This document shows, in pieces, positions 476 through 49,751 of a stretch of DNA of 64,000 nt (its first letter is position 1; each line of letters starts with the position of its first letter). This DNA is from Acanthopleura granulata (taxonomy: Eukaryota > Mollusca > Polyplacophora > Chitonida > Chitonidae). The DNA lies in contig JABBOT010000010.1 in the NCBI GenBank assembly GCA_016165875.1, positions 14,967,357 through 15,031,356 on the forward strand, written 5' to 3'. Position numbers and translations under genes: made by a program. Under the pieces are notes generated by a model. It saw only the letters and a list, made by a program, of their open reading frames with translations, searched no databases and was not told where the DNA came from.

Positions 476-631
476 AACGAATCATTAATGTCGCCTGACA
501 TAGAAATTGACCCATCACTGGCATATCTGAAGGGGCCTCCATCAGAGCTGAAGAACTTCAAGGTGCTGGGCACAGTTGGGAAGGTGTTGCTGGTGCTGGA
601 CAGGAGTACAGACAGCACCTATGTTATAAAG
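476..631 (+). CDS. RPS6KC1: RPS6KC1 exon 1 in window: kinase N-lobe start
   Basis: The exon is 52 codons in phase 0/0, between acceptor TTTCAG (471-475) and donor GTAGGT (632). It encodes LKGPPSELKNFKVLG, then the degenerate glycine loop GTVGKVLL and ends at YVIK, the ATP-anchoring lysine position. The PPSELK..VLG stretch is the recognisable RPS6KC1/RPS6KL1 entry to the kinase domain. The internal ATG at 488-490 is not the gene start, since the family has upstream PX and MIT domains. Confidence 0.88.
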
Positions 632-3600
632 GTAGGTGCACTGTGTGTAGGGAGGCTCACATACGTGTACATGGAGTAGAAAGAGCACAAGCAGCACTGT
701 GTGCCCAGAAAACAGCACTGTGTGCCCAGAAAACAGCACTACCTCACAAAGGAATTGATATTTGATCAGCCTCAGTAAAACCTCAACTTTGATCAGATTA
801 GTGAATGGCTCTAAAGCGAGCTGTGACACAGGGGACAAGATTAGCATGTTAACATGTCTCAGTTGAGATGAATTTAATCATGTCAGTCAAGGATTCGAGA
901 ATGGCTTCTTTCGTCTCTCTTTAAATAAACACATTGGCTTTCATGGAGCCAGCTTTTAAACACACATTTAAATGGGGAACATTATTCTCTCTCCAATAAC
1001 TATAACGTGGTCACTCGATCGTGTATTTGAGACATGGAAAGTGTTATGAGCTTTTGAAATGAGCAGGCCTGGGCTAAATGGAAAATGGCAGGGCCATAGC
1101 TTTTTCTATAAAAAGAAATAGATAGGTGAAACTGCAGTCTATGTTTGGAAAGATTAAACAAACACCGAGTTCAGTGCTGGCCCATGATTAAGTGATAATA
1201 ATTAAGGTAATAAAACTCTCACACCTTTATAATAAACTGGAAATGAAAAAATCCGGCGACAAAGGATATTTTACATCCATAAAATGTGGTTTAAAATCAT
1301 AGTCTTGACTTTTAACTTAACCATATATTTGGGTCCTTTGTCATTTCGTTATAGCTCAATGGAGCCTATGATGTGATCCAGAATCTGTCCAGGGACTAGC
1401 GCATTATAGATAGGAGTAGGCCACACAGGCTATGCCTATGTTATACAGGTGTGCATAGTTGTCACCTTTCTAGACAAGTATTTTAGTTTGCCCGTAAAGT
1501 GCACTTTTTTGGTGTGAAATTTTAGATCATATAGGGTAACTTATTTCAAAGCTAGTATTCACCGGAAGGGTTCGCTTCTAAGCCTACATGTAAGTGAAAA
1601 ATTTGCTGCCCACAGCGACTCTCTGTATCCTTGCATTTTACACAAACACGTTTGTTACATATCTGATACATTGTTCTTTCAGACGCTGCACAAAGCTGTT
1701 GTCACTCCAGTTCCCAAGCGACCGAATATCGTGCCCACCTCCTGCCCGTACATGGTGCAGTTTTACAAGTTTTACGAGACGGACAATGCCGTGTATATGC
1801 TGCTGCAATACGCCAGCGGGGGCAAGCTCTGGAACTACATCGGGGCCTACTTACAGTACAACCATGGCTCAGGCCTGAAGGGAAACGTGAACATATGCGA
1901 AGAAAAGGGCAAGGGGAACATCTACACTGGCCAGAAGCTACATTTGGAGGAGTCTGTTGGCCTGGACGGTAACAGGAATGGTAACTCTAACAGTGCCAGT
2001 GCTGGGGATGTCAGCGGAGACGTTGTCATCGATATTTGTGATAATGTGACGTATCTTTGCGAAAGAGACGGTAAAATGTGTGATATTACCAACCCGCTAG
2101 CAGAGGGTGGTGACCTGACTGATATTGTTACCATATGTGATAAGGATGGTAAGACAGAGGGTGGTATTACCACTGCAGTATGTGATGGGATTAGTGGTAA
2201 ACTTGGTGCAGATAAAACAGTCAGGAGCTTGTCTCCAGATGTTTGCTCATCAGCATATGTCGAGCTGTTTTCAAAAGAGACCCCTGTTTTACAGGAACAA
2301 GGGTTAACGGAGGTAGGAGTGAAATTTGTCAGCTATAAAGATTCGGCGGAAGCGAAGCCAGAAATCACGACCAATCAATCACTTCCCTCCACCACAAATG
2401 GTGTTGACCAACCGGATTTAAGGAATTGTAGCCTGTCCTCCGACGACATGATGCATACTGATTTGAGTGTTTCCCATAACACAAGTGCATTCTCAGAGAA
2501 GATTCCGCCGGGTGAAAGATTTGAAGAGACATTACAAGACAGTAAACGTTCCTTGGAGAATTTCTCCATAGGTAGTTTTGATGAAGGAGACAGTTTCCAC
2601 CGACAAGACAGCCACATGTCTGACTATATTAACAGTATTCCTGAAGAGTCTGAAGTCTTCTCAACGCAGGACGGGTTAACTTCTCCCTGCAAGGAACAGA
2701 GCAGCAGTGATCTGAAGCCACTCAACCCCCCGTACCCTGGTGCCTTAATAGATGAAGTAGATACAGAAAGTATTGTGAAAAGCACCAAAGAGTTGTTAAA
2801 GTCTGTGGACAGAAACTTGCAAGATGACAGGACTGCATTTAACACTGCGCCAAATTTGGAAGCCAGTCCCGAAGCCAGTATTAATAACTCAAATCTTCTG
2901 TCAAATATTACTTCAAATCATTCATCTTGTGAGCTTAGTATTTATGACTTAAACAAGTCCAAAGAAGGTGATAATTTGAGTTCTGGTGAGCTGCCAGCAT
3001 CAAACGGGACAGTTTCAGTGGACGACACAGTTGAGGTGGGTGTGGCTGTCCTGTCACATGACACAAGTGCTCCCAAACCAATCCCACCCGCAACAAAAAC
3101 TGAGGCGTCTTCGAGCGTGACTAAGCACACGGTTCAGCCAAGCCCTAGGGACAGGCAGCGGAGTGTAAGTGGCACTAGAAAGGGCACAAACATTATCAGG
3201 ATGAATTCGAAGGAACCCTGTCGCTCAGCGTCGTTCGAGTGCGACCTGAAATCGCCGTCGAAATCCCGCACGAGGACTATATCAGCTGTGTTTGAACAGC
3301 TGGATACGGCATCTGCACATAACCATGATGTGGTGAAGATTCCTGAGAACTGCATCAAACAGTGGGCAGCAGAGATTGTGGTGTGCCTTAACAGTCTCCA
3401 CTCCATGGGCATTGTCTGCAGGTGAGTACAGACATTGGCATTGTCTGCAGGTAAGTACAGACAAGTATCAGGGTGTTGTCTGCAGATAAGGACAGACATG
3501 TATCATGTGCATTGTCTGCAGGAGAGTACAGACATTGGCATTGCCTGCAGGTAAGTACAGACAAGTACATGTATCAGGGTGTTGTCTGTAGGTACATGTA

Positions 3601-6600
3601 CGAACATGTGTTGTGGGCATTGTCTGCAGATAAGAACAGACATGTATCATGGGCATTGCTTTGAGAACAGACATGACCAATACACAAGTGAGACAACTTT
3701 TACTAGCTTATCAAACACGTCATACACAAAACAGCCATAATCACACATACATGGACACATACTGAGCCTCAAAAACATAATAATACTGGTGACACGGTTA
3801 CTTGGTGACTGGATATGGAAACATATGCTGTCAGTAACCTCATACTGGGCAAGACAAAAGCTTTGCCTATTCAATGTAGAAGACCAATGCAGAAGCGAAT
3901 CAGTCAGGTCATGGTTTTTGGAGGAAAACAAAGTCCTCACTGTTACCATTGCCTCCCAAAGAAAACCAGAGTATTTTGTGGGATGTGGGATAAATTTTAA
4001 TGTTTGTTTCATCCAAAAACACAGCAAATGGGGCAGAAGTTCAAGATTAGAGTTTAGGTCGTACACAGCTGAAATCTCTGTATACTTGATATGAGCAACT
4101 GAACTGTGGTAGATATGATTTATGAGTGGTTGTTGTTGTTGCAGAGACCTAAACCCTGACAACATCTTGCTGGGTGACCGGGGCCATGTGCTACTGACCT
4201 ACTTTAGTCAGTGGTCTAACACAGAGGAGAGAGTGGAGGAGGAATGTGTGGAACAGCTCTACGTGGCTCCAGGTAAGCTGGCTCTACCTGATGTATGCTA
4301 CCTGTGTGAGTGTGGGCAACAGGTAACACAGGGTGGAGGAGGTTTATGTGGAGCAGCCGTATGTGGCTCCAGGTAAGCTGGCTCTACCTGATGTATGCTA
4401 CCTGTGTGAGTGTGGGCAACAGGTAACACAGGGTGGAGGAGGTTTATGTGGAGCAGCCGTATGTGGCTCCAGGTAAGCTGGCTCTACCTGATGTATGCTA
4501 CCTGTGTGAGTGTGGGCAACAGGTAACACAGGGTGGAGGGGGTGTATGTGGAGCAGCCACATGTGGCTCCAGGTAAGCTGGCTCTACCTGATGTATGCTA
4601 CCTGTGTGAGTGTGGGCAACGGGTAACACAGGGTGGAGGAGGTTTATGTGGAGCAGCCGTATGTGGCTCCAGGTAAGCTGGCTCTACCTGATGTATGCAT
4701 CATACCTGTATGAGTGAACACAGATCTGCTATGCTTGGTCAGATATCTGGTCACATTCTTCATGGAGGTCAGGTGTTAGTCAGGTACATTTCAGGCCGGA
4801 TGTTTTTCAGGTGTCAGGCCAGGTGTTTTGTCAGGTATCATTCCAGGTGTTTGTCAGGTGTCAGGCCAGTTGTTTTGCCAGTTATCAAGCAGGTGTTTTG
4901 CCAGGTGTCGTTTTTTTTCTGGTATCATCCCAGGTGTTTGCCAGGCATCATTCCAGGTGTTTGTCAGGTATGAGGCCAGACATTTGTCAGGTACCAGGCC
5001 AGGTGATTTGCCAGGTGTCAAGCCAGGTGTTTTTCAGGCATCAGACCAGATGTTTTGTCAGGTATCAGACCAGGTGTTTTTTCAGATTTTCAGATGTAGG
5101 AATAAGCACTAAGTCTGTATCTTTGGTTGTTTATGTGATATTTATTTTTATATCTGATTGTGTTTTACATGTACGCAGTACTGAAGAATATTTCACTTAT
5201 ATGATGGTGGCCAGCCTTATTGTGGAAGGAGGCCAAGCAAAACCAATGACCATCGGCAGGTTGCTGTATTACCTTTCCATATACGACTGAAGAGGAAGAT
5301 AGCATGAGCTAGACTGTCTTGAGGAGAGGCTCCTTGGTCATAGCACTGCACTAACTACTGCAGTCATGGAGGCCACTATTTAAGTGATACATGAATATTG
5401 TCAGTCATAGTTTATTTCTATTGTCTGTTCTTTCAGAGGTGCGAGGCATCACAGGGTACAGTGAGGTGTGTGACTGGTGGAGCCTGGGGGCACTGTTGTA
5501 TGAACTCCTTGTGGGAAGGGTAAGTATTGATGGGATCACAGGGTACAGTGAGGTGTGTGACTGGTGGAGCCTGGGGGCACTGTTGTATGAACTCCTTGTG
5601 GGAAGGGTAAGTATTGAAGGCATCACAGGGTAGAGTGAGGTGTGTGACTGGTGGAGCCTGGGGGCAATGCTGTATGAACTCCTTGTGGGAAGGGTAAGTA
5701 TCGAAGGCATCACAGGGTAGAGTGAGGTGTGTGACTGGTGGAGCCTGGCGGCAATGCTGTATGAACTCCTTGTGGGAAGGGTAAGTATTGAAGGCATCAC
5801 AGGGGAGAGTGAGGTGTGTGACTGGTGGAGCCTGGGGGCACTGCTGTATGAACTCCTTGTGGGAAGGGTAAGTATTGAAGGCACCACAGGGTACAATGTG
5901 GTGTGTGACTGGTGGAGCCTGGGGGCACTGTTGTATGAACTCTTTGTGGGCAGGGTAAGTATTGAAGGCATCACAGGGTAGAGTGAGGTGTGTGACTGGT
6001 GGAGCCTGGGGCCACTGCTGTAAGAACTCCTTGTGGGAAGGGTAAGTACTGATGGGATGACAGGGTGGAATGAGGTGTGTGACTGGTGGAGCCTGGGGCC
6101 ACTGCTGTATGAACTCCTCATGGGCAGGGTAAGTATTGAAGGCATCACAGGGTGGAGTGAGGTGTGTGACTGGTGGAGCCTGGGGGCAATGCTGTATGAA
6201 CTCCTTGTGGGAAGGGTAAGTATTGAAGGCATCACAGGGGAGAGTGAGGTGTGTGACTGGTGGAGCCTGGCGGCAATGCTGTATGAACTCCTTGTGGGAA
6301 GGGTAAGTATTGAAGGCATCACAGGGTGGAGTGAGGTGTGTGACTGGTGGAGCCTGGGGGCAATGCTGTATGAACTCCTTGTGGGAAGGGTAAGTATTGA
6401 AGGCATCACAGGGGAGAGTGAGGTGTGTGACTGGTGGAGCCTGGGGGCACTGCTGTATGAACTCCTTGTGGGAAGGGTAAGTATTGATGGGATCACAGGG
6501 TGGAATGAGGTGTGTGACTGGTGGCCTGGGGCCACTGCTGTATGAACTCCTCATGGGCAGGGTAAATATTGATGGGATCACAGGGTAGAGTGAGGTGAGT

Positions 6601-8912
6601 GACTGGTGGAGCCTGGGGCCACTGCTGTAAGAACTCCTTGTGGGAAGGGTAAGTACTGATGGGATGACAGGGCGGAATGAGGTGTGTGACTGGTGGAGCC
6701 TGGGGCCACTGCTGTATGAACTCCTCATGGGCAGGGTAAATATTGATGGGATCAGAGGGTAGAGTGAGGTGAGTGAATGGTGGAGCCTGGGGCCACTGCT
6801 GTATGAACTCCTTGTGGGAAGGGTAAGTATTGAAGGCATCACAGGGTAGAGTGAGGTGTGTGACTGGTGGAGCCTGGGGGCACTGCTGTATGAACTCCTT
6901 GTGGGAAGGGTAAGTATTGAAGGCATCACAGGGTAGAGTGAGGTGTGTGACTGGTGGAGCCTGGGGGCAATGCTGTATGAACTCTTTGTGGGCAGGGTAA
7001 GTATTGATGGGATCACAGGGTAGAGTGAGGTGTGTGACTGGTGGAGCCTGGGGCCACTGCTGTATGAACTCCTCATGGGCAGGGTAAATATTGATGGGAT
7101 CAGAGGGTAGAGTGAGGTGAGTGAATGGTGGAGCCTGGGGGCAATGCTGTATGAACTCCTTGTGGGAAGGGTAAGTATTGAAGGCATCACAGGGGAGAGT
7201 GAGGTGTGTGACTGGTGGAGCCTGGGGGCACTGTTGTATGAACTCTTTGTGGGCAGGGTAAGTATTGATGGGATCACAGGGTAGAGTGAGGTGTGTGACT
7301 GGTGGAGCCTGGGGGCAATGCTGTAAGAACTCCTTGTGGGAAGGGTAAGTATTGAAGGCATCACAGGGTACAATGAGGTGTGTGACTGGTGGAGCCTGGG
7401 GCCACTGCTGTATGAACTCCTCATGGGCAGGGTAAGTATTGATGGGATCACAGGGTACAGTGAGGTGAGTGAATGGAGGAGCTTTTTAACATAGAGAAGT
7501 AGAGGGGTGGGATTGTCAGAGAGTCCTGGTCTGAGGCTTAAATTGAGCCAACACTCTTTGTGTCCAAATGATTGAGGATAGAAAGAATGGAGAAGGGATC
7601 AATGCTGTTAGAGGACTCGTTCATAGTTCAGTATCCAGCTGATGTATCTGGTGCTGACATCATACATTACTCCCATTTATCATTTATATATAGGTGAAAT
7701 GTCATGAATTCCTTCACTTTTAAAAGTGTTATTTAACCTGTCAGACATCACTTTTGCTGTTGCATTTTAATATTTCACACTGAGATGCCTTGATGTTGAA
7801 ATGAAAAAATTATGAGATTCCAGTCTGAGCTTAGTGAGATGACATCGTAATACAAGTTTAGTCAAATTTAACATTCCTACATCACGCAGTCAGAAACGTC
7901 ACCATACAAGATGTTATGTAAAACATCACCCTATATGTAAGTCTATCATGGCCTAGGGCCAAAAAAGTTGCCTTATTTCATGAAATGGTCAAAATCATGA
8001 TATTGTCAAAATGTAAATGATAAATAGAGTATTACACACTGAAAAGTAGGAAAGATAACCTGCAAGCTGCAGATAACAATCTTTATGGTATCCACCTTAA
8101 CTGTGCAGTATTCTCTATGTGGTAACTGTCTGTTGTCTAACATTCTGTGTTGCTGTGTTGTTACAGAGCCTGTTGTCTGCACACCCCGGGGGAGTCAACT
8201 CTCACACCCAGCTCTTCCTTCCCGCCCACTTGTCAGACGAGGCCAGAGCTCTACTGGAGGAGGTAAGCACACTTCTGGTCTACACCAAACCAGTCGTCTA
8301 GTGCAATTCATCTGTTGGTTCGTTATATAGGTTCATCTAGTCTCCTGCTCAAACGTAGTCTGGGGCAATAATGGTTTTCACTCAGCTGCGTTATGGGTTG
8401 ATTTATTTATTTATTTATTTCATTGATGTTTTATGCTGTACTGAAGAATACTTCACCTATACGACAGCCACCAGCATTATGGGGGGAGGAAACAGGGCAG
8501 AGCCCGGGGAAAATCCACGACCATCCGTAGATTTGGGTTTTTTTATTATATGTAGATGCATTTAACAGATGTTTTTGGTAAGCCATTCTATTTTACATGT
8601 CATTTGTCCTCTTCTTCCATATTTAGGGTGGCCTTTGTTGCATATGTTGCATATGCATGTGTCAGTTTGCCCCCCTCCCCCCACCCCCAAAAAATTAAGA
8701 AAACAAAAGAATTAGTTAGGTCATTTGTGATGGTCAAGTGATGATATGAAGTAGGCAAGTTCCGTGCTGTACTACAAACGTACACGCTGTTACTGTTTCA
8801 GCTACTGCGTCACAACCCGCGCGAGAGGCTGGGTGCTGGCATTACAGGTGTGGAGGAGATCAAATCTCACCCGTTCTTCTGTGGCGTCGACTGGGCAAGT
8901 CTCACAGGCTGA
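476..8912 (+). CDS. RPS6KC1: RPS6KC1-like (RPK118) split pseudokinase, 3' part of gene, 6 exons
   Basis: Joined exons 476-631, 1683-3421, 4145-4272, 5437-5519, 8167-8262 and 8802-8912 have GT..AG junctions, compatible phases and 2313 nt in total (770 residues plus TGA). The family has PX and MIT domains upstream (not in this window) that bind phosphoinositides and endosomal partners, then a kinase domain split by a long insert. Seen here: N-lobe with degenerate glycine loop (GTVGKVLL) and YVIK lysine (residues 1-52), more N-lobe to the GGKLWNYI segment (53-113), a ~480-residue Ser/Thr/Asp-rich insert, catalytic-loop VCRDLNPDNILL, APE, DWWSLG and RERLGAG. The HRD position is CRD and the DFG position reads YFS, so metal binding is doubtful and it is probably a pseudokinase. 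From memory human RPS6KC1 has the same YFS. RPS6KL1 is the nearest alternative, but the very long insert favours RPS6KC1. Confidence 0.9.
632..1682 (+). other. intron of RPS6KC1-like gene
   Basis: This GTAGGT...TTTCAG intron is AT-rich. The only structure I see is a two-copy 22-bp tandem repeat near 694-740 built on GCACTGTGTGCCCAGAAAAC. No exon-like segment is visible. Confidence 0.8.
1683..3421 (+). CDS. RPS6KC1: RPS6KC1 large exon: N-lobe, long disordered insert, start of C-lobe
   Basis: This 1739-nt exon has phase 0 in and phase 2 out (donor GTGAGT at 3422). It starts TLHKAVVTPVPKRPNIVP, then the hinge region with YMLLQYASGGKLWNYI. About 480 residues follow that are rich in Ser, Thr, Asp, Glu and Asn, with no visible fold. 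The Arg/Ser run RQRSVSGTRK near the end suggests basophilic phosphorylation sites. The exon closes with IKQWAAEIVVCLNSLHSMG, the alpha-E helix, and IVCR of the catalytic loop. The insert between the two kinase lobes in one giant exon is typical of RPS6KC1. It diverges fast, so ordinary alignments will show two separated blocks. Confidence 0.9.
3401..3665 (+). repeat. tandem copies of the exon 2/intron 2 donor junction
   Basis: The last exon bases plus donor (GGGCATTGTCTGCAG then GTGAGTACAGACA) recur about seven times in the next 240 bp, irregularly spaced by roughly 30-60 bp. Two copies keep a strong GTAAGTACAG donor (near 3451 and 3551); others are decayed (GATAAG, GAGAGT, GTACAT). The orientation is the same as the gene. 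Confidence 0.85.
3666..4144 (+). other. remainder of intron 2
   Basis: Unique AT-rich intron ends in a T/G-rich tract and acceptor TTGTTGCAG at 4136-4144. Nothing coding or repetitive was recognised. The open frames across it on both strands have no family resemblance. Confidence 0.7.
4145..4272 (+). CDS. RPS6KC1: RPS6KC1 exon 3: catalytic loop, YFS in place of DFG, activation segment
   Basis: The 128-nt exon has phase 2 in and phase 1 out. With the preceding AG it encodes RDLNPDNILLGDRGHVLL then TYFSQW, so the DFG Asp and Gly are both missing. After an acidic activation segment it ends at EQLYVAP, with the final Glu of APE completed by the next exon. The catalytic Asp of RD and the Asn of PDN are kept. 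The donor is GTAAGC at 4273. Confidence 0.9.
4230..4698 (+). repeat. 100-bp tandem array carrying exon 3 donor junction, 5 donors
   Basis: Donor GTAAGCTGGCTCTACC occurs at 4273, 4373, 4473, 4573 and 4673, exactly 100 bp apart. Each copy is preceded by a match to the exon end (TATGTGGCTCCAG) and followed by the same intron stretch. Copies are almost identical, implying recent amplification. Reading past the first donor reaches TAA within about 50 bases, so use of later donors would truncate the protein. Confidence 0.95.
4735..5095 (+). repeat. degenerate ~24-bp minisatellite in intron 3
   Basis: About 14 diverged copies of a unit like CCAGGTGTTTTGTCAGGTAT fill this part of the intron. The unit repeatedly contains CAGGTG/AGGTGT. 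Copies vary in length and sequence, so this array is older than the adjoining 100-bp array. Confidence 0.85.
5130..5358 (-). mobile_element. SINE-family copy in intron 3
   Basis: Reading + strand it has a T-rich end, then TACGCAGTACTGAAGAATAT, TTCACTTATA, GGCCAGC.TTAT, CATCGGCAGGTTGCTG and the distal GAGGCTCCTTGG block. These segments recur in the same order at 23957, 30515 and 34350. It is diverged and its tRNA-like end is decayed. The tail lies at the low-coordinate side, so the element is on the minus strand. Confidence 0.75.
5437..5519 (+). CDS. RPS6KC1: RPS6KC1 exon 4: APE end and DWWSLG helix
   Basis: The 83-nt exon has phase 1 in and phase 0 out, acceptor TTCTTTCAG (5428-5436) and donor GTAAGT at 5520. 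It completes APE and encodes VCDWWSLGALLYELLVGR, the kinase alpha-F helix whose Asp anchors the regulatory spine. It is the only copy of this sequence in the array that has an acceptor. All later copies are donor-side only. Confidence 0.9.
5446..7480 (+). repeat. 87-bp tandem array of exon 4 plus its donor, 23 donors
   Basis: Donors (GTAAGT or GTAAAT) lie at 5520, 5607, 5694, 5781, 5868, 5955, 6042, 6129, 6216, 6303, 6390, 6477, 6562, 6649, 6736, 6823, 6910, 6997, 7084, 7171, 7258, 7345 and 7432. The step is 87 bp except one 85-bp step (2-nt deletion near 6522). Each unit has ~74 nt of exon 4, ending in the alpha-F helix codons, then ~13 nt of intron. 87 is 29 codons, so frames stay open until a unit carries GGGTAG; the first such stop is at 5631-5633 in unit 3. 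This also creates long open frames on the minus strand that are artefacts. Confidence 0.97.
7481..8166 (+). other. remainder of intron 4
   Basis: Unique AT-rich intron after the array, ending in acceptor TTGTTACAG (8158-8166). I see no further exon or repeat. Confidence 0.7.
8167..8262 (+). CDS. RPS6KC1: RPS6KC1 exon 5: C-lobe helices
   Basis: 32 codons, phase 0/0, donor GTAAGC at 8263. It encodes SLLSAHPGGVNSHTQLFLP and the helix LSDEARALLEE. The pattern HPGGVNSHT..L.LP followed by S.EAR.LL matches what I recall of the C-lobe of RPS6KC1. Confidence 0.88.
8398..8534 (-). mobile_element. SINE-family fragment in intron 5
   Basis: (TTTA)n, then TTTTATGCTGTACTGAAGAATACTTCACC, CAGCATTATGGGGGGAGGAA and CCACGACCATCCG. 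The (TTTA)n end and central domain are present; the distal tRNA-like end is missing, as expected of a 5'-truncated copy. Confidence 0.8.
8802..8912 (+). CDS. RPS6KC1: RPS6KC1 last exon: C-terminal end of kinase domain and stop
   Basis: 36 codons plus TGA, acceptor CTGTTTCAG (8793-8801). It encodes LLRHNPRERLGAG, then GVEEIKSHPFFCGVDW and ends SLTG. RERLGAG with E(I/L)KSHPFF is the AGC-kinase C-lobe end. The protein stops immediately after this, without an AGC hydrophobic-motif tail, as in RPS6KC1. Confidence 0.92.
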   Translation, partial: LLRHNPRERLGAGITGVEEIKSHPFFCGVDWASLTG

Positions 8913-11204
8913 CATGTTAACACACAGCCAGGACTGAGGCGCGCCAGACGCTGATGGAGCAGATGCTTGTACCAAAATGTACCCGATTTCGTGGTCACTG
9001 ATGTAAGGCCACAAACATCTAGCACCATTTAGTTCTGTTCCACGTTTTACGTATTTATGTGGTTGTTGATCCAGATTTAGTTCTGTACAGCTGAAGAGGG
9101 CACATTTTTGTAGATTTTATCTGGAAAACTGTGAAAGAGAGGAAAAGAATGGAAAAGACAGGAAAGGAAATGTTCATCAGAAGAATGTCCTTGTCAGCCA
9201 CTGGTGCACATGTGCGTGGAAGAGTAATTTTTTTTATATTGAATGACAAGAGAAAATTCATGGGGTTATTGTTTTCTTTGTAACCGTGCTTTTAAGTGCA
9301 ATTTCGTATTCCTCAAAGATTAGGAATAACTTTCATGGAATTCACGTTATCTCTGTACCTTTGGTGGAAAGTGTTTCTTTTTTCTTGACATTGCTGGAAG
9401 ACATGTGACTCAGTCAAAGATTTGTTGCCTTCAGCAGGTTTGGCCTTCTTGACCTTCAGCACGTTCGACCTTCTTGACCTTCAGCAAGTTTGACCTTTGT
9501 TGCTGTATGTTGGGGTGACAGACAACTGACAGGAGACATAAGCACTATGACATAGATAACAAAGCTTGACTTTCAAGCATTGAATGCCATGTGGAATTTT
9601 GTGGTTATCCAATTCTTCTCTGAGAACAAGTATGCTCTTGTGCCTCTGTCAAACAGTGATGAAACACTGTTATCCCTAGAATTGCCCTGATATTGTGTAG
9701 TTGTCAAAGAACAAAGTATTTAAAAAAACCTAAGGTTAAATAATTTCAAGGGATGTAAATGTGTGAAGACTCTTGAGTTGTCTCCCCTTACTTGTCTATT
9801 TACCAATAAGCCATATAGTGGTTTCGAATTGCGCATGAGCAGAACGCGTCATATGGTGGCCATTCGTGTCGACAGACTTCGGCAACAGCCCAGTGTAGAG
9901 CACAGTTGCATTTTTTTTTCTGTGTTTTTCACAGAGTTTTCCACGTGAAACAGCCCACAGCCCATGCATAGTCTCAGATGTCACAGACACATAAAATGCA
10001 CAAAATGGGCTGAATAGTGTGTCACTGCCTATGGTTACATTACTTTCAACACAGCCACAAGTGTCTGTTTATCTACCAGCGAAGGCAGTCCAGTCATGCG
10101 CTGTCAGCCATCTGGCTAAATCTGATTGAGAGTCAGATAATTATCTTTTCAGACAGAAATAATTTAAAACTACCATTGTCTGAATCATAGATCAGATATA
10201 ATATCTATTTAATATTAAGTGCACGTGTAACTCCCAATGAGTCCATTAGGGTATGTGTATATGTTATGCCATCACACTACACCTTTTTCCAATTTTTAAT
10301 GCTACAGTAGTCTAGGATTAGGAACATTTACATCCATGACACAAATGTATGTAAATTTTTATTTAATAACCAAAATCTGTGGTTTAAACTTCTTACAAAT
10401 ATATATATATATATATATGTATATATATTCTAGTTTTTTTCAAAATTGGTACATGTATCAAACCTTAATGTTTCATTATCGAGAAGAGCCTTAGATTAAA
10501 TTTTAACATTTAATCAAGTTGGATGAAAACATTGTTTTGCTTGTGGCCGTGTAAGTGGATATTTGTTTTGTTCATGAAGTCTAGATTGTGTTTTAATATG
10601 TACAATGTTGAAAGTTAACAGTGCTCATGAACTCTGTTTTCAGATATCAAGTGTTAACGTGAGGTCTGAAGCATGGTGTAACAGTATTTTGCCCTAGTGA
10701 TATCATTTTCTGCTCCCTTAGGTATCGTGTTGTATGGGTTAGTGTAACACATGTACTTCACTAGGTTTCCTGTGCTCATATTTTTAATACCGATCACACA
10801 TACAAGTACACATGTTGTATGAACGAGAAAGAGATTGTTGGCAGTTGTGGCAGTTATGTGATAAATATATAGTTAGAACATGCGTATATACATGTGTGTA
10901 GCATATGCATATGCCCAATAGGTAACCTTTAAATTAATTGTCTGTTATACATACATATAGTATATATATTGTTAATGCCTGTCAACATGTTTTGGTTGTT
11001 GGTGTTGTTGTGCTTACAATCAGAATCAAGTGTTAAGTAATGCACTGTGTGGACTTGGATATTGCAATTCCATCAGGTCAGTAGGATATTCAGTTTGCAG
11101 AAATCACATATATGTATGTGTGTTTACTAAATATCATATGACTTTAACAGTTCTGCAAGCATCTTGGTTGGTTTCAACATTTTGCCATTCTACTGTTGAG
11201 ATTT

Positions 11205-11338
11205 TCTCTTCGAGTAAGTGGACGTGGGTTTTCCCTTGGCTCTGCTCGGTTTCCTCCCACAGTAATGCTGGCAGCCGTCATATAAGCCGTATAAGTGAAA
11301 TATTCTTGGGTTAAACGCCAATCCAATAAATAAATAAA
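11205..11338 (+). mobile_element. SINE-family fragment
   Basis: Central domain GCTCGGTTTCCTCCCACAGT, then AATGCTGGCAGCCGTC, GTGAAATATTCTTGGG and a (AATA)n tail at 11325-11337. Only the 3' half is present, in plus orientation. Confidence 0.85.
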
Positions 11339-13596
11339 TCTTTGACCAAGCCTGATTATCCTCATATAAAGGGCCTTTTATGTTTAACAGCATGCAGTGT
11401 CCATCTGGAACATGGTCAGACAGTAAAACTGTAAAATATTCATGCAAGGTAGCTAATATGTATATATTTGAATAGACTTGTTGTCATCTTCCTGGATTTT
11501 ATATGGTCCACATGGATAAAAACTCATAGCACATAATATTCATTTCAGCTCAAGAAGTGCAAAAGTTTTGTTAGATTTGTTATTGAAATTTAACTGGGTA
11601 AACACTTCTTATTTGCATGAGATTTTTTCTGTTATTCTGTATTCATTCTGTTAAATTCATAAATTATGTGTTGCCAGGAAACTGCATAAAGCTGTACAGT
11701 CTGAAATTTGCTTCAGAATGCCAGGGCTTGTGTTCCATTGATCATGTGCTGTTGGGAAGTTTCAGTGGTCCCTGCTCACTCATTCGACAGTCTGTGACCT
11801 CATTGAAACAGTTTCATTTTCTGAGATCTGACTGCAGGAAACCATTACAATGTCATCACTGTCTGGAAAGAGATATCAGAAATGTGCGTTTGATGTATAA
11901 TTTTACATTTATGCATGACTTTTTATGGCACTACTGCACCACTGATATAAAAGAAAAATTAGTGAGTCATTTTCAGATTGAAACCTTGCCAAAGCCGAGT
12001 CATAACTTGGTGAGGCCTATACACAACAGTTTGTGATCCATAGATGCCTGCTTCAGGAAGGTCACAACATATTATCACACGCTGTTACAACTTGTGGTAA
12101 ATTTGTTTCTGATGTCATATGCTGGATGTAAATCATTTGGGATTCATATTAGATGCTGCCTTTTGATTTTCTTATTAATTTTAAGTCAAAATTTATCGAT
12201 GACACAAACAACAATCTTTTTGAAATGTGCGTTACCAAATCTGTTGAGTGAGAAATCAATTTTGACATCAAACCATACATCATGCAAAGTATTTATATTT
12301 CAATGTGTTTTTAGTGCTTCATTGTCAAATTTTTATATCTAATATTTCTTGGTGCTAAAGTCTTACTTTCAGAACTCTGTTAAGCGTATTAGTTGGATTA
12401 ATCTTTAAAGATGCAGAAGTAGAGCACAGATCAGATTGTTTTCTGATTTGTTAAAGAAATTGTACGCAAAACAATGTGGAGAGTCCCACATCTTACCTTC
12501 TGCACAGAAAATTCATTACTGCCATTGTTGTTGTTTTCTTCCTGCGATTTTTTTCACGGATTCCTGTGATATATACTTGCATACCTGGCTTTTGTTATTT
12601 GTGAGAGTTTCGCTGGCATAATTAGTGAAAATGTAACTTGGGGTAGAAAACGTCTAGTCTTGCTCAAACCATAAAGCCCATGAATATGTTGAACATTGAT
12701 ACAAGCTTAATTGAGACTTGGTCTCCAGTACAACTTGTTTGTACACTCTGTATTTTGTCAGGGCAGAGAACTTTAATGAAGACAATTCAGTGGAGAGCTT
12801 ATAGACAGGTACATGCTATTACAAAGAGAGGGTGGCATTATTTGTCACAGTGGATAAAATTTCTTGCCCGCCAGGATTTTTTTTGTTTCTGTTTTTGCTT
12901 TTTTACGTCAAAATACCCATATCACATGCAATATGAGTGCTAAATGTGCAGTCTTTGCTGAGTTTTCAGTTCATTTATTAAAGTAAGACCAGTTTAGTGG
13001 GTGGAGATTTTGAACAATTATGAGAGACAAGCTTTAAACAATGAAGAACAAAGTATTGCTGCACAGTATGCAGTTTTATGAAACTTTGTTTCAGTAAACG
13101 TGAATTGTCATTTCATGTGTTTGGTTATCGATCACAAGAAAAAACACGCTGCTCAAAGTGTGTGTGTGTGTAAAAGTGTAAAGTGTGAGACATGGGTGTA
13201 GTACTGCCAACCCAACTGGTCGTCGTAAATTCTTACAAATGACCATGTAGCTTTGTCATCTCTCTGCTCAGTAGGCTCAAAATATCTGGTATTTATGTCA
13301 GAATTTGTCAAGTGTATTATGTCATAAATATTTATAAAGCTGTACTCAGGGTATGAACAAAGTAAATAATGACACCGTTCACTTAGCACAAATGACTACA
13401 GTGTAACACCTTTAGGCAGTATTTGATCTAAGAAAATTGTGGCAAGAACATTGTTTATGTCCTTCCGGATATATTTGCATTGTAAACAGCTGTATTACAA
13501 GACAATACGATACAGGGCTAAACTGGTTTACCCTTTAGATGTCAGGTGGTGCCAATCCTCAAATGACATTCTTCTTGTCCCCTTTTAATATTCAGT

Positions 13597-13602
13597 AATA
13601 AA
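13597..13602 (+). terminator. candidate poly(A) signal AATAAA (+ strand)
   Basis: AATAAA in GTAATAAATAC, downstream of the RPS6KC1 stop and upstream of the convergent gene. Hexamer match only. Confidence 0.35.
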
Positions 13603-13855
13603 TACAACTTGAATTGTTGACAGTTTTACATCAGCATGGTGTATTTGTGTGTACTGGTGCCTGTACAGCTGATAATGATAAAAATGTCTGCTTGGTGTAT
13701 ATATGTGTACTTTGGTATGTTTGAGTTATGTTTTTGTGAATGTGATTTGAAAGAATTTTTCCATGTCTTTACATTTTGATCTCTCCACTCAGTTATGGAA
13801 AGGCGCATTCCTCTATATTCTTAAAGTATAATCAGAACTGTGTTCTTTCACTTCG

Positions 13856-13861
13856 AATAAA
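13856..13861 (+). terminator. candidate poly(A) signal AATAAA (+ strand)
   Basis: AATAAA in TTCGAATAAATATT, followed within ~35 bp by a T/G-rich stretch. It lies 2 bp from a minus-strand AATAAA, so this is a plausible shared end of the two convergent genes. Confidence 0.4.
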
Positions 13862-13863
13862 TA

Positions 13864-13869
13864 TTTATT
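13864..13869 (-). terminator. candidate poly(A) signal AATAAA (- strand)
   Basis: TTTATT on the plus strand is AATAAA on the minus strand, 1.4 kb beyond the stop of the minus-strand gene. Its use is inferred from position only. Confidence 0.35.
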
Positions 13870-14034
13870 GTTTCAATCTTGATATTTGTTATCAGTATAT
13901 CATTTCAGTCTACTTACAGCCATTACTGCCAGTGATAGCCCAAGTCGTGGGTCTAATTGTCCCCATTACAAACTGGGCCAGGCAGTCCCAATTATACACT
14001 GGGTCAGACCTAGAAACACCACTATGTTATACTT

Positions 14035-14440
14035 ATTTGATTTTTGCTTAACGCCATACACAAGAATTTTTCATCTTTACGTTGGCAGTCAGTATTATGC
14101 TCGGAAGTAATGAGAGTGCCTGACATAAACCACCACCCTTTGGCAAGTTGCTGACAAACTTCCCACCTATGATGAACAAGTACAAATACGCACACCATAT
14201 CGCTGGAAGGCAAGTGGTCTTCATTTAATGTTGGCCTGTGCAAATGGCCACATGAGTGTCGTAAGCCGTTCACTGTGACCAAGGCCGCTACCTGGAGTGA
14301 GAGCGGAGAAATATAAAAATTCCCTCTCTGAGGACATGTTTTAACCAACATTTTGTGTGCCCTAGCCACTGAATGACAAACACCTGTAACCACTAGACTA
14401 TGGCCTCTCCCAGACCACTTAGTATGACAGCAGTGAGGGG
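14035..14440 (-). mobile_element. SINE-related repeat, family with GGCAAGTTGCTGACAAACTT body
   Basis: Begins with the shared module GCTTAACGCCATACACAAGAAT, then runs into AAACCACCACCCTTTGGCAA, GTTGCTGACAAACTTCCCAC and a GGAAGGCAAGTGGTCTTC block. The same order is found at 30236-30480, 34621-34960 and 49562-49740. Its body differs from the main SINE family although the (TTTA)n-side module is shared. A 210-codon minus-strand open frame over it is not a gene. Confidence 0.7.
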
Positions 14441-14892
14441 TTCGGGGTTGACTGGGGTGAGGTAGCATGACGAGAGATTTGAGGAAGCAGCCATACCATA
14501 CTAAGTTCCAGAAGCACATGTACTGGGAGCTGGATTTGAGTGAATGATTTGGTGTTTGTTTCACCAGGAATACTGTGATGAACTCACCAGCAGCAGAGTT
14601 CTGCATGTCAACAATTCCAAGGCAACATACCATAGTTTGTGTTCCAACACACAAAACAGCTTATCATTACCAGCAGCTCTTGGAGACAGCAGGATTCTTA
14701 CTAACTCCAGGGGTGACCTAGAACATTTTCAACATAATCCGGAACCAAGAATTCCCCTACACATGTACAGATCATGGACAAGACACACCTTGTTAGTCTC
14801 GGTATGAAATGTCCTGGCAATTTTCAGCTGTAAATTTGTTTTTGCCTTATTGGGTTCAGTCCTCAATTTGGAATGCCATGACAGCTTTCATT

Positions 14893-15240
14893 TCACATTC
14901 AATTCTGATTCACTCTGAAATGTCCTGGCAACTTCCAGCTGATGAAATCTTGTCTCTGTGTGAAACATTCACGCAACTTGCAGTTGGTGAAATCTTGTCT
15001 CTGTGCGAAATGTCTCAGCAACTTGCAGCTGTTGGAATCTTGCCTCAGTGTGAAATGCCCCGGCAGCTTGCAGTTGGTGAAATCTTGTCTCTGTGTGAAA
15101 TATTCCCGCAACTTGCAGTTGGTGAAATCTTGCCTCAGTGTGAAATGCCCTGGCAGCTTGCAGCTGGTGAAATCTTGTCTCTGTGTGAAACATTCTGTAA
15201 ATTGCAGCTGGTGAAATCTTGCCTCAGCATGGAGTGTCTC
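14893..15240 (-). repeat. 45-bp minisatellite just past the stop of the minus-strand gene
   Basis: Seven copies of a 45-bp unit containing CAACTTGCAGTTGGTGAAAT then CTTGTCTCTGTGTGAAA. 45 is a multiple of three, so both strands show open frames of repeating 15-residue blocks. It lies 37-384 bp beyond the TGA of the FG-GAP gene, probably in its 3' UTR. Confidence 0.9.
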
Positions 15241-15276
15241 TTTGTAAGTCTGAGACCTTCACAAACTTCTTGTGGA

Positions 15277-15411
15277 TCATGTTGCTGAGATCTTGAGGGC
15301 AGAGACTGAGTTATCCAGGCAGCCTAACACCACCTCCTGAGTACCATCACCATCCAGGTCTACCAGGTGTACAGAGTTCACCCAATCCAACGTCTGGTAC
15401 TGGGCAGACTT
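15277..15411 (-). CDS. FG-GAP gene exon 8 (last), with stop
   Basis: 44 codons plus TGA. The acceptor is CTGTTTCAG next to AAGTCTGCCCAGTACCAGAC. It encodes LDWVNSVHLVDLDGDGTQEV then VLGCLDNSVSAL, a classical FG-GAP/VCBS blade. Its acceptor side is amplified upstream, so the frame stays open far into the intron. Confidence 0.87.
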   Translation of the reverse strand, partial: KSAQYQTLDWVNSVHLVDLDGDGTQEVVLGCLDNSVSALKISAT

Positions 15412-18400
15412 CTGAAACAGGCAAGAAAATGTGTAATACCAGACAGACTTCTGCAACAAGCAAGAAAACATGCAGAGGGAACGTAACCTGATACTGGGCA
15501 GACTTCTGAAATGGGCCAAGGAAATGTCTGATACTGGGCAGACTTCTGAAATGGGCCAAGGAAATGTCTGATACTGGACAGACTTCTGAAATGGGCCCAG
15601 GGAATGTGTGATACTGAGCAGACTTCTGAAATGGGCCCAGGGAATGTCTGATACTGGGCAGACTTCTAAAATGGGCCAAGGAAATGTCTGATACTGGGCA
15701 GACTTCTGAAATGGGCCAAGGAAATGTCTGATACTGGGCAGACTTCTGAAATGGGCCCAGGGAATGTCTGATACTAGGAAGACTTCTAAAATGGGCCAAG
15801 GAAATGTCTGATACTGGGCAGACTTCTGAAATGGGCCCAGGGAATGTCTGATACTGGGCAGACTTCTGAAATGGGCCCAGGGAATGTCTGGTACTGGGCA
15901 GACTTCTAAAATGGGCCAAGGAAATGTCTGATACTGGGCAGACTTCTGAAATGGGCCCAGGGAATGTGTGATACTAGGAAGACTTCTAAAATGGGCCAAG
16001 GAAATGTCTGATACTGGGCAGACTTCTGAAATGGGCCAAGGAAATATCTGATACTGGGCAGACTTCTGAAATGGGCCCAGGGAATGTGTGATACTGGGCA
16101 GACTTCTGAAATGGGCCAAGGAAACGTCTGATACTGAGCAGACTTATGAAATGGGCCAAAGAAATGTCTGATACTGGGCAGACTTCTGATGCAAGACAAG
16201 GAAAACGTCTAATACCGGGCAGACTTCTGAAAGAGGCAAGAAAATATACAGAGTGAATATAACCTGATACTGTGCAGATTTCTGAAACAGGGCCAAAAAA
16301 AAACAGACAGAGTGAATATAACCTGATACTGTGCAGATATCTGAAACAGGACAAAAAAACATACAGCGTGAATATAACCTGATACTGTGCAGATTTCTGA
16401 AACAGGGCCAAAAAAACATACAGAGTAAATATAACCTGATACTGTGCAGATTTCTGAAACCGGACCAAAAAAAACATACAGAGTGAATATAACCTGATAC
16501 TGTGCAGACTTCTGAAATCGGCCCCCAAAACAGGTAGTCTGAATATAATCTGACATTAAGCAGGCTTCCACTACAGTATAAGAAAACATTCAGGCTGAAT
16601 GTAACCTTTCACTGTGGGAATGGTGCAATCCTAGAAACAGCCTTTAGAGTTCTCTGTTAGGGCCTGTGGTAAACATGTGGTGTACAGCCCAATCTCAGCT
16701 GAATGTCCAACAGCAATGATGGCAGGGCAATACCGAGGACCCTGATCCACTCCCTCCAGGGCTATGGCCGTACAATCCTGCCATCCTGACCAGAATTTGC
16801 CAGCTTTTGGGTTTGGTTTACCTTGGAGAAGTTTTTCCTGCTGGACAATTTCTCACAGAATTCTAACCTATTAAAGCATAGGTGTTAACAGCCTACTGCT
16901 TGGCATTTTTATGAATGAATGAATGCTTATTGTTTAACGCCCTACACAAGAATATTTCACTTATACGAAGGCGGTGTCTCCTTGGTGCAGGACGGATTTA
17001 GACTGTATCTTTTATCTGGTGCTGCGTCACCGAAATGACTTGCCAAAGATACCCAACAAGCCCCCCTCACCCAGTCACATTATACTGACACCATGCCGAC
17101 CAGTCCACCCTCTATCCTCTTATTGCTGAGCACCTAGCGAGGAGGCAGGATGTACCATTTTGGTAAAAGCATGTATACACTGAGCATATATAATACAGTG
17201 CAATGGGAACATATAGGCAAATGAAGCTGTAACGTCAGCAATCTGCAGACATCTCAATATGCTTCTCATGCTAACTTTGTACAGGTGTACAGGTACGGGT
17301 TGAAACTGAACGTGTTTTCAGTGCAAAATTCTTCTGGCATATTGTCATGGATTTTAATATTGCTTCACATTTCATAAGAACTGCACAGGATATGTGCTGC
17401 CAACACAATTCACAGAAATATATATATACGTACTTGCTCTTTATGTCATTAGAAATGATATGTACAATCATTCGGCCCTCATTCGATCATGAATGTGCCA
17501 CAATATGCACATCCTGATCAGATCACAGGGCAAAGAATCGATCATGTGGCACAATATGCACATCCTGATCAGATCATAGGGCGAAGAATCGATCATGTGG
17601 CACAATATGCACATCCTGATCAGATCATAGGGCGAAGAGTCGATCATGTGGCACAATATGCACATCCTGATCAGATCATAGGGCGAAGAGTCGATCATGT
17701 GGCACAATATGCACATCCTGATCAGATCATAGGGCGAAGAATCGATCATGTGGCACAATATGCACATCCTGATCAGATCATAGGGCGAAGAATCGATCAC
17801 CATCATGTGGCCAAGATGGCAGCAGTGTATTGCGCTAGGATACGGCATACTGCATCTTGTGAATTAAGAAAATTTTTCTGAAACAATGTTTCTTGTCTTC
17901 TTTTTTTTTCTGTTAATCCTACCATGTTAATTCTTCTGTTAATCCTACCATGCTTGAGTACAAATACGAGTTTCTCATCCTTCTTTTCATGTCGCAGAAA
18001 TGGATTTTAAGATGACTATTTGTCAGCTCGCAGCAGTCAGCCAATCACTAAAGGGTATCTATTACAAAGACTGTACTTCTGCACTGGAAAACAATTTGCA
18101 CTATCACTTTTGGAACTTCCCTAAAACTTACAGAGAATAAGCACGAATCTGGGTTATCTAATGACAAGGAAGCAAATATTCATCAAAAATAAAAATAATT
18201 CCAGTGTTGCAGAGATCTGCTTCAATGCCGATCCCTAGACATGTAAGACTTATGATCCTACCTTTCCTTCATAGAACACCTGCAAGGCATTGAAGTGACC
18301 AGCACATAACAACAAATCTGATTGGATATCTGGAATGCTGAGGCCGGAAAGGTGCATGATGGGTAATCCAGTGTTGGCATATTCATCTTGAGACAGCTGT

Positions 18401-26140: not shown

Positions 26141-26261
26141 TTTTAAGGGATTTACATCCACTGAAAGATATAAACGATATAAAAAAAAAGTAACAACAAT
26201 TAAACACACGTGCGAATTTTGTTTTGAAATCTCAACACGCCTTTCCTACCTTTATCAAAGA

Positions 26262-36179: not shown

Positions 36180-37480
36180 ACGCCTAGATGACGTATAGAA
36201 CCAGCAGACATAGAGGCCTAACTGACGTATAGAACCAGCAGACATGGAGGCCTAACTGACGTATAGAACCAGCAGACATACAGACTTACTTCGCGCATAA
36301 TATCAGCAGATACACATACCGAGCCGACGTACAGAACCAGGAAAAATACATACCGAGTTGACGTATTGAACCAGGAGACATACAGGCCTATTTGGCGCAT
36401 AATATCAGCAGACATACATACCCAGCTGACTTACAGAACCAGGAGACGAACAGGCCTAGAACCAGAAAACGTACTTACCGAGCTGACTTATAGAATCAGC
36501 AGAGATACATATCGAGCAGACGTATAGAACTAGGAAACATAAGGCCTGACGTATAGAATTGGCAGACATACAGGCCTAGCTGACTTATAGAACCAGGAGA
36601 CATACAGACCTAGCTGAATTATAGAGCCAACAGACATACAGGCCTAGCTGATGTATGGAATCAACAGACATAAAGGCCTAGCTGATGTATAGAACCAGCC
36701 GACATTCATACCAAACTGACGTATAGAACCAGGAAACATAAGACCTAGCTGACGTATAGAATCAACAGACATAAATGCCGAGCTGATATACAGAACCAGG
36801 AGACATACAGGCCTAGCTGACGTACAGAACCAGCAGACATACAGGACTAGCTGACGTATAGAACCAGGAGACATACAGACCTAGCTGCAGTATAGAGCCA
36901 GCATACAGGCCTAGCTGACGTATAGAATCATCAGACATAAATACCGAGCTGACGCATAAAACCAAGAGGCATACAGGCCTAGCTGATGTATAGAACCATT
37001 AGACACACAGGCCTAGCTGATGTATGGAATCAACAGACATAAAGGCCTAGCTGATGTATAGAACCAGCCGACATTCATACCAAACTGACGTATAGAACCA
37101 GGAAACATAAGACCTAGCTGACGTATAGAATCAACAGACATAAATGCCGAGGTGATATACAGAACCAGGAGACATACAGGCCTAGCTGACGTACAGAACC
37201 AGCAGACATACAGGACTAGCTGACGTATAGAACCAGGAGACATACAGACCTAGCTGCAGTATAGAGCCAGCATACAGGCCTAGCTGACGTATAGAATCAT
37301 CAGACATAAATACCGAGCTGACGCATAAAACCAAGAGGCATACAGGCCTAGCTGATGTATAGAACCATTAGACACACAGGCCTAGCTGACGTATAGAACC
37401 AGGAGACATACAGACCTAACTGACGAATAGAACTATTAGACATACAGACCTAGCTGACGTATAGAATCAACAGACATAAA
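36180..37480. repeat. ~36-bp minisatellite, about 35 copies
   Basis: The unit resembles GCTGACGTATAGAACCAGCA plus GACATACAGGCCTA. Copies vary, many with TGACGTATAG. Minus-strand frames of 65-76 codons inside it are repeat effects. A higher-order duplication lies inside it at 36644-37381. Confidence 0.93.
36644..37381. repeat. 369-bp higher-order tandem duplication inside the minisatellite
   Basis: 36644-37012 and 37013-37381 match across ten variant units. The only difference I see is GAGCTG versus GAGGTG (near 36781 and 37150). Such identity among otherwise diverged units implies very recent duplication or an assembly duplication. Confidence 0.88.
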
Positions 37481-44904: not shown

Positions 44905-45028
44905 GAATCTGCGGTGGTCGTCCTCGCGTTCTGCCCGGTTTCCTCCCACCATAATGCTGGCTGCAGTCGTATAAGTGAAATATTCTTGAGTATATGGTGT
45001 TAAACACCAGTCCAGTAAATAAATAAGT
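44905..45028 (+). mobile_element. SINE-family fragment
   Basis: GCGTTCTGCCCGGTTTCCTC, CCACCATAATGCTGGCTGCA, GTCGTATAAGTGAAATATTC, TTGAGTATATGGTGTTAAAC and a TAAATAAATAAG tail. 3' half only, plus strand. Confidence 0.88.
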
Positions 45029-49740: not shown

Positions 49741-49751
49741 TTATCAATAAT

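What the first reader, a model, noticed from the sequence alone, without database searches (positions are those of the whole stretch)
3401..16560. Four splice junctions each seed their own tandem array, in two convergent genes
The arrays at 3401-3665, 4230-4698 and 5446-7480 each begin at, and are built from, an exon end plus its donor in the RPS6KC1-like gene. The array at 15400-16560 is built from an intron end plus the exon 8 acceptor of the opposite gene. Units differ entirely in sequence (irregular ~30-60, 100, 87 and 40 bp), so they are independent amplifications. Ordinary intronic minisatellites should not repeatedly include the splice boundary. It suggests either a local mechanism tied to transcription or splicing (for example R-loop or RNA-templated repair) or selection for redundant splice sites. 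The observation is direct; the mechanism is speculative.
Basis: partly seen in the sequence, partly recalled or inferred. Interest (0 to 1): 0.9.

Follow-up and report, generated by a model that had tools for sequence, protein, structure and literature searches.

The report
Splice-junction minisatellites in a chiton
In two neighbouring genes of a chiton (a marine mollusc), short tandem repeats have grown four separate times out of an exon-intron boundary, copying the splice site up to about 26 times; this resembles the 'mirages' already described in amphioxus and looks tolerated rather than useful.

Summary
Two convergent genes carry four tandem arrays, each built from an exon end plus its splice site: three donors (3421, 4272, 5519) in an RPS6KC1 (S6 kinase delta-1) orthologue and the exon 8 acceptor (15411) of a beta-propeller gene. 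A 30-mer across each junction finds 3, 4, 17 and 22 near copies on the intron side. The other 21 of 25 junctions tested find none above shuffled controls. Protein matches place the window in a chiton near Liolophura sinensis.

The kind is known: amphioxus 'mirages' (PMC3087553, PMC3902484). My paper searches listed no earlier molluscan case.

Best explanation: DNA-level tandem duplication and unequal exchange, tolerated because the outermost copy stays the working splice site. Splice columns are not clearly better conserved than other unit columns, and array 1 lost GT in 3 of 7 copies, so selection for redundant sites is not supported. GC skew fits an R-loop idea in three arrays and contradicts it in the fourth. 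Four of eight arrays on junctions exceeds placement controls (expected 0.70, P about 0.001; 0.00015-0.19 under other rules), but the window was picked for this feature and no genome-wide test could be run.

The parts
476..8911 (+). Gene 1: 3' six exons of an RPS6KC1 (ribosomal protein S6 kinase delta-1) orthologue: 476-631, 1683-3421, 4145-4272, 5437-5519, 8167-8262, 8802-8911 (stop codon overlaps the end, about 8910-8912)
   Evidence: Open frame of 770 aa with GT/AG; Pfam Pkinase; L. sinensis P0031 84% over 100% and mollusc 'ribosomal protein S6 kinase delta-1-like' proteins; alignment
3407..3658 (+). Array 1: 7 copies of the exon end + donor of the 3421 junction, spacing 29-41 bp; GT kept in 4 of 7
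   Evidence: TRF; copies listed, spacing; junction 30-mer 28/30, 3 places at 24/30 or better
4233..4698 (+). Array 2: 100-bp unit = 40 nt of exon end + 60 nt of intron with donor, 5 donor copies (the last unit is partial)
   Evidence: TRF; units and spacing; exon/intron divergence contrast; junction 30-mer 27/30, 4 places
5444..7482 (+). Array 3: 87-bp unit = 76 nt of exon 5437-5519 + 11 nt of intron with donor GTAAGT, 23 donor copies; copy 2 differs from the exon copy at 5 of 87 nt, all in the first 7
   Evidence: TRF; units; translation and donors; divergence; copy 1 v copy 2; junction 30-mer 30/30, 17 places within 1.5 kb
15277..26140 (-). Gene 2: beta-propeller / FG-GAP-like protein, 8 exons: 26140-26046, 22618-22516, 21992-21803, 20807-20701, 20060-19893, 19387-19250, 18396-18262, 15411-15277
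   Evidence: 356 aa, ungapped alignment to L. sinensis P0008, 325 of 356 identical; hits in molluscs and other invertebrates
15396..16553 (-). Array 4: 26 copies of the exon 8 acceptor (first exon base 15411) with about 18-24 nt of exon; a 40-bp block (15505-16185) inside units of 39-59 bp (15411-15505 and 16185-16511); AG kept in 25 of 26
   Evidence: TRF from 15488; copies listed, spacing and AG count; junction 30-mer 26/30, 22 places at 24/30 or better
4791..5085 (+). Array of about 23-bp units in the same intron as array 2, not matching the junction
   Evidence: TRF; the junction 30-mer reaches 24/30 at 4 places only within 1.5 kb, the number expected from the four downstream array-2 copies
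14916..15227 (-). Comparison: 45-bp array just 3' of the gene 2 stop codon, not on a junction
   Evidence: TRF
17493..17799 (-). Comparison: 51-bp array x6 inside gene 2 intron 7, not on a junction
   Evidence: TRF
20869..21181 (-). Comparison: 78-bp array x4 inside gene 2 intron 3, about 60 bp from the exon 4 acceptor, not on it
   Evidence: TRF

Best explanation
These are mirage-type minisatellites. Shown: each array is a head-to-tail amplification of a DNA segment that straddles one splice junction, it extends into the intron, and the copy at the exon edge is the one that fits the protein. Inferred: a DNA-level tandem duplication (slippage or short-homology break repair) happened to span the junction. 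It was tolerated because splicing can keep using the outermost donor (first copy) or acceptor (last copy). Unequal exchange and conversion then raised and homogenised the copy number. The exon part of the outermost copy is shielded by purifying selection on the protein; the intron part is not. Array 2 fits this: copy 1 differs from copies 2-3 at 7 of 40 exon positions and at 0 of 60 intron positions. Duplications wholly inside exons are purged, so junctions are where exon-derived units can survive.
For: Unit anatomy at all four junctions. Clean split between 4 junctions with copies and 21 without. Copies are free to decay: 10 of 23 array-3 units carry an in-frame stop and one more has lost the exon frame through a 2-nt deletion; GT is lost in 3 of 7 array-1 copies. 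Exon versus intron divergence in array 2: 7/40 v 0/60 against copies 2 and 3, Fisher P=0.0012; 9/40 v 1/60 against copy 4, P=0.0010. The L. sinensis protein is identical to the exon copy across this stretch, so the copies are the diverged ones. Splice columns are not clearly more conserved than others: in array 3 (21 copies compared), 24 of 82 six-column windows are at least as invariant as GTAAGT and 44 of 86 two-column windows as GT; in array 4 (17 units), 20 of 39 two-column windows as AG. The L. sinensis proteins join at these junctions with no array-encoded insert. Similar behaviour, including turnover with exclusion of cluster boundaries and length variation, is reported for an amphioxus globin mirage.
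Against: No RNA of this species was available, so use of the outermost site is inferred from predicted proteins of L. sinensis, whose own introns I could not see. In array 3 the intronic columns vary less than the exonic ones (mean non-consensus 0.024 v 0.051), which leans slightly towards constraint on the donor. Pure neutrality does not by itself predict 4 of 8 arrays on junctions (expected 0.70, P=0.00125), so some junction bias may remain unexplained. No polymorphism or unequal-exchange product was seen directly. The duplication step (slippage versus break repair) is not identified.
Confidence: 0.8

Rival explanations
1. Splice junctions are true hot spots: transcription or splicing (R-loops, stalled polymerase, co-transcriptional structure) or the junction sequence itself promotes local tandem duplication.
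For: 4 of 8 arrays lie on junctions against 0.70 expected, P=0.00125; three are in consecutive introns; array 4 has two unit lengths over the same junction. The three donor arrays are G-rich on the non-template strand, skew +0.30, +0.32, +0.49, against +0.02 to +0.16 in nine non-array intron stretches.
Against: The acceptor array has the opposite skew, -0.18; two of the four non-junction arrays are also at +0.20, the other two at -0.06 and -0.03. Four other arrays in or beside the same genes are not on junctions. P depends on the placement rule (0.00015 to 0.055, 0.19 for free placement), and the window was chosen because of this feature. Part of the donor-array skew may just be the skew of the copied exon (not tested).
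Confidence: 0.25
2. Chance plus selection of the window: arrays fall anywhere in these genes, those on junctions are tolerated, and a window with four was noticed among many read.
For: Free placement gives P=0.19 for 4 or more of 8, and a cap of 120 nt of exon gives P=0.055. The number of windows read in the first stage is unknown to me.
Against: With exon overlap capped at one unit, 40 or 80 nt, P is 0.00125, 0.00015 and 0.0032. Amphioxus shows the same recurrence in several genes.
Confidence: 0.4
3. Selection for redundant or decoy splice sites: extra donors or acceptors buffer mutation or regulate splicing.
For: GT or AG is kept in 5 of 5 (array 2), 23 of 23 (array 3) and 25 of 26 (array 4) copies. 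Array 3 intronic columns vary less than exonic ones (0.024 v 0.051). The nearest inner site of array 3 adds 87 nt and that of array 4 adds 39 nt, both in frame without a stop. A minisatellite is over-represented near alternative splicing regions in C. elegans (PMC4039745, abstract and section list only).
Against: GT and AG columns are not clearly better conserved than other columns. GT is lost in 3 of 7 copies of array 1. The nearest inner donor of array 1 leads to a stop at residue 632 of the 770-aa partial protein and that of array 2 at residue 716, so those two would give truncated products. L. sinensis proteins show no inserts.
Confidence: 0.05
4. Assembly artefact: collapsed or expanded repeats.
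For: Copy number in long arrays can be wrong in any assembly; in amphioxus PGBD5 two versions of the genome sequence differed in copy number. Array 2 copies 2 and 3 are identical and the partial copy 5 matches them over its 66 nt.
Against: Units differ from each other (array 3 mean pairwise divergence 0.080 over 22 units, array 4 40-bp units 0.103 over 17), register is kept and flanks are unique; stuttered assembly would give identical copies.
Confidence: 0.03

Closest known systems
Mirages: minisatellites spanning exon-intron boundaries in amphioxus genes (Adh3, globins BflGb6 and BflGb9, troponin C; compared there with PGBD5). PMC3087553 (abstract and passages), PMC3902484 (passages); the paper that named them (Canestro and colleagues 2002) known only from the reference list (not held)
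   Same: Tandem units made of exon end plus intron, many including AG or GT; both 5' and 3' boundaries affected; unit length differs from gene to gene (10-160 bp there, about 29-100 bp here); outer copy diverges from homogenised inner copies
   Different: A chiton mollusc, not a cephalochordate; up to 23-26 copies; three consecutive introns of one gene plus a neighbouring convergent gene; no RNA or polymorphism data here
Internal tandem repeats at exon-intron boundaries of human genes in segmental duplications (PMC2812944, passages)
   Same: Tandem repeats crossing exon-intron boundaries, some forming new introns
   Different: There variable repeats change the transcript; here the arrays lie outside the orthologous coding sequence
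Intron gain by tandem duplication of AG/GT segments (Rogers 1989 and later work, seen only as cited in PMC3087553 and PMC2812944)
   Same: Duplication supplies ready-made splice sites
   Different: No new intron is seen here; the existing introns have only become longer
Ordinary intronic minisatellites, for example the length-polymorphic 27-bp array in intron 3 of abalone TSSK1-like (PMC6905558, passages)
   Same: A mollusc; unit size, turnover
   Different: In the passages seen that array is placed inside the intron; here the unit includes the exon edge

Membership tests
Mirages (boundary-spanning minisatellites) | Tandem repeats whose unit spans an exon-intron boundary | tested here: met
   Four arrays
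Mirages (boundary-spanning minisatellites) | Either 5' or 3' boundary may be duplicated, with many copies keeping AG/GT | tested here: met
   Three donors, one acceptor; GT or AG in 4/7, 5/5, 23/23, 25/26 copies
Mirages (boundary-spanning minisatellites) | Unit sequence and length differ between genes (independent origins) | tested here: met
   29-41, 100, 87 and 39-59 bp, different sequences
Mirages (boundary-spanning minisatellites) | Normal splicing is not disturbed | tested here: inconclusive
   Predicted L. sinensis proteins lack inserts at all four junctions; no RNA of this species
Mirages (boundary-spanning minisatellites) | Concerted evolution within the array, boundary unit excluded | tested here: met
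   Array 2 only: 7/40 exon v 0/60 intron differences between copy 1 and copies 2-3; not formally tested in the other three
Mirages (boundary-spanning minisatellites) | Length polymorphism and somatic instability | not testable with these tools
   One haplotype only
Selected redundant splice sites | Splice dinucleotides conserved above the rest of the unit | tested here: not met
   array 2 too uniform to tell
R-loop-driven amplification | Positive GC skew on the non-template strand at every array | tested here: not met
   +0.30, +0.32, +0.49, -0.18

The most novel reading that the evidence does not exclude
Exon-intron junctions are a recurrent hot spot for seeding minisatellites in distant animal lineages (amphioxus and chitons), because of the junction sequence or its co-transcriptional state. 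The resulting arrays then supply ready-made splice signals for new introns or micro-exons: the 55-59 bp units of array 4 hold an 18-nt in-frame piece with an acceptor before it and a weak CAG|GT after it.
Probability: 0.2. Interest if true: 0.75.

Novelty: new member of a known kind. Interest (0 to 1): 0.42.

Why it matters
It extends a phenomenon that the papers I could find describe in amphioxus (with a related human case) to a mollusc, with four examples in one 13-kb stretch. Chitons are a second system in which one can ask why minisatellites seed at splice junctions and whether they feed intron gain. Chromosome-level chiton genomes exist (PMC12005716 and PMC11068029, passages), so the question can be tested directly.

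Tried and rejected
Selection for redundant sites, R-loop origin and assembly artefact were tested or weighed and put low (see rivals). Spliced-mRNA templating was rejected because units hold exon-intron joins. A coding role for array 4 was considered because the 40-bp block is free of stops in the exon 8 frame (ORF 15280-16143 minus); it was rejected because the L. sinensis orthologue has no insert there. First idea that the window might be amphioxus: rejected by protein hits. Naming the organism by an interspersed repeat through paper searches led nowhere (0 papers; a limpet paper on the Nin-SINE, passages, without letters to compare). Rfam and tRNA scans: nothing. Pfam on 20 of the 46 ORFs of 85 aa or more beyond 22 kb listed: no match at E 0.01, although one of the 20 (25895-26245) later proved to hold exon 1 of gene 2. 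Paper searches for other reports of boundary-spanning arrays: 9 of 9 listed; 7 of 7; 20 of 153; 7 of 7; 15 of 2,226; 3 of 3; 10 of 12. By title and start of abstract no listed paper reports a molluscan case; passages were read in two molluscan papers among them and none was found.

Rows dropped before the placement test: five TRF arrays under 75 bp within 476-26140 (692-740, 7978-8012, 9428-9497, 10399-10428, 17911-17952). None lies on a junction; counting them would give 4 of 13. The 30-mer test searched up to 1.5 kb on the intron side, running past the intron where it is shorter, and only 463 bases for the acceptor at 476. One search used one wrong donor coordinate (21788), replaced by 21803; three gene 2 boundaries were one base off (which is why the translation broke) and were corrected. 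In one search the best 120 of 767 hits were listed.
Full report
What the window is. The best protein match of the minus-strand gene is an uncharacterised protein of the chiton Liolophura sinensis, 93% over 100% of the 290-aa query. With all eight exons in place it aligns over 356 residues without a gap, 325 identical. The plus-strand gene matches an uncharacterised L. sinensis protein at 84% over 100% and, after it, proteins named ribosomal protein S6 kinase delta-1 in other molluscs. Both L. sinensis proteins come from a contig of the same length, 82,493,220, which suggests that the pair is syntenic. The window is therefore from a chiton near, but apparently not identical to, L. sinensis (Mollusca, Polyplacophora, Chitonidae).

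The observation. Gene 1 exons end at 3421, 4272 and 5519 with donors GTGAGT, GTAAGC and GTAAGT. Array 1 has seven copies of the 3421 junction, one of them weak, four with GT, 29-41 bp apart. Array 2 has five copies of the 4272 junction exactly 100 bp apart. Array 3 has 23 copies of the 5519 junction, 87 bp apart except one 85, each holding all but the first seven bases of the exon and lacking its acceptor. Array 4 lies upstream (in the minus sense) of exon 8 of gene 2 and holds 26 copies of its acceptor, 25 with AG. Counting outward from the exon the spacings are 39, 55, seventeen of 40, then 41, 55, 59, 56, 57 and 58, so a 40-bp expansion sits inside a 55-59 bp array over the same junction.

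Control on all junctions. I took a 30-mer across every junction of the two gene models (25) and looked for its best match in up to 1.5 kb on the intron side, with 100 shuffles of each 30-mer. Four junctions gave 28, 27, 30 and 26 of 30, with 3, 4, 17 and 22 places at 24 or more. The other 21 gave 15-18, all below the maximum of their own shuffles. There is no twilight group of half-decayed copies.

Is it more than chance? There are eight TRF arrays of 250 bp or more between 476 and 26140 (array 4 extended by hand from 15488 to 15396). Placed at random without overlap, and with at most one unit of exon covered, 0.70 are expected on a junction; four or more came up in 0.125% of 20,000 trials. 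Free placement, which would destroy exons, gave 19% (run on the first 22 kb). These figures are conditional on a window picked for the feature, so I read them as suggestive only.

Selection or neutrality. In array 3 the splice columns are invariant or nearly so, but so are many others: among 21 copies, 24 of 82 six-column windows are at least as invariant as GTAAGT, and 44 of 86 two-column windows as GT. Against this, the intronic columns vary less on average than the exonic ones, 0.024 v 0.051. In array 4, 20 of 39 two-column windows are at least as invariant as AG among 17 units. In array 1 three of seven copies have lost GT. Ten of 23 array-3 units have an in-frame stop and one more has lost the exon frame. 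Using the nearest inner donor would give a stop at residue 632 (array 1) or 716 (array 2) of the 770-aa partial protein. For arrays 3 and 4 the nearest inner site adds 87 and 39 nt in frame. The predicted L. sinensis proteins have no such inserts.

A trace of turnover. In array 2 the exon part of copy 1 differs from copies 2 and 3 at 7 of 40 sites, the intron part at 0 of 60 (Fisher P=0.0012; copy 4: 9/40 and 1/60, P=0.0010). The L. sinensis protein is identical to copy 1 over this stretch. The simplest history (inference) is that copies diverged, spread along the array, and replaced the intron part of copy 1 by exchange, while changes to the exon part were removed by selection on the kinase. 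In array 3, copy 2 differs from copy 1 at 5 of 87 nt, all in the first seven, and is identical over the other 80, which suggests recent exchange or duplication at the exon edge.

Mechanism. The units hold exon-intron joins, so spliced mRNA was not the template. An R-loop origin would predict G-rich non-template strands at all arrays. Skew is +0.30, +0.32 and +0.49 at the three donor arrays and -0.18 at the acceptor array, against +0.02 to +0.16 in nine non-array intron stretches and +0.20, -0.06, -0.03 and +0.20 in the four arrays that are not on junctions. I therefore favour DNA-level tandem duplication followed by unequal exchange, with survival at junctions because one outermost working site remains. 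Whether junctions are also preferred as seeds is open.

Comparison with what is known. [quoted passage not shown] a role in intron gain was proposed there (PMC3087553, abstract and passages; PMC3902484, passages). Human genes in segmental duplications also show tandem repeats at exon-intron boundaries (PMC2812944, passages). The chiton arrays meet the sequence-based features tested; splicing and instability could not be settled. I found no molluscan report in the listings, which cover open-licence papers only and were partly capped. An abalone gene has a polymorphic 27-bp minisatellite in an intron, but the passages seen do not place it on a junction (PMC6905558).

Verdict. A real feature: a new member of a known kind, in a phylum where I found no earlier report. 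It is moderately interesting, because chitons could serve as a second test bed for why minisatellites seed at splice junctions.

Noticed in passing
476-26140 against 26141-64000: TRF arrays of 250 bp or more are crowded in and around the two genes (8 in 25.7 kb) and rare beyond them (one, 36182-37478, in 37.9 kb). Gene content beyond 26 kb is unknown; 20 ORFs from 25.9 kb onward gave no Pfam match.
   Followed up: partly
36182-37478: A 34-bp array of about 39 copies with a 369-bp higher-order repeat, 93% matches.
   Followed up: no
14916-15227: A 45-bp array starts about 50 bp past the gene 2 stop codon, with a 90-bp higher-order period.
   Followed up: no
about 8400-8540, 11220-11330, 16916-16980, 20160-20300, 23954-24196, 44857-45187, 49750-49880: Copies of one interspersed repeat, on both strands, seen by eye in DNA or translations; from memory it resembles the mollusc Nin-SINE, not confirmed here.
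   Followed up: partly
16226-16511 (minus): The 55-59 bp units of array 4 look like 18-nt in-frame micro-exons: TTTCAG before and CAG|GTTATA after in five of them.
   Followed up: partly
15280-16143 (minus): The 40-bp block is open in the exon 8 frame for 288 codons, though 40 is not a multiple of 3; the orthologue has no insert.
   Followed up: yes
15277-26140 (minus): A conserved invertebrate beta-propeller / FG-GAP protein mostly called uncharacterized in the hits, weakly like BBS2, BBS7 and ITFG2; function not known to me.
   Followed up: partly
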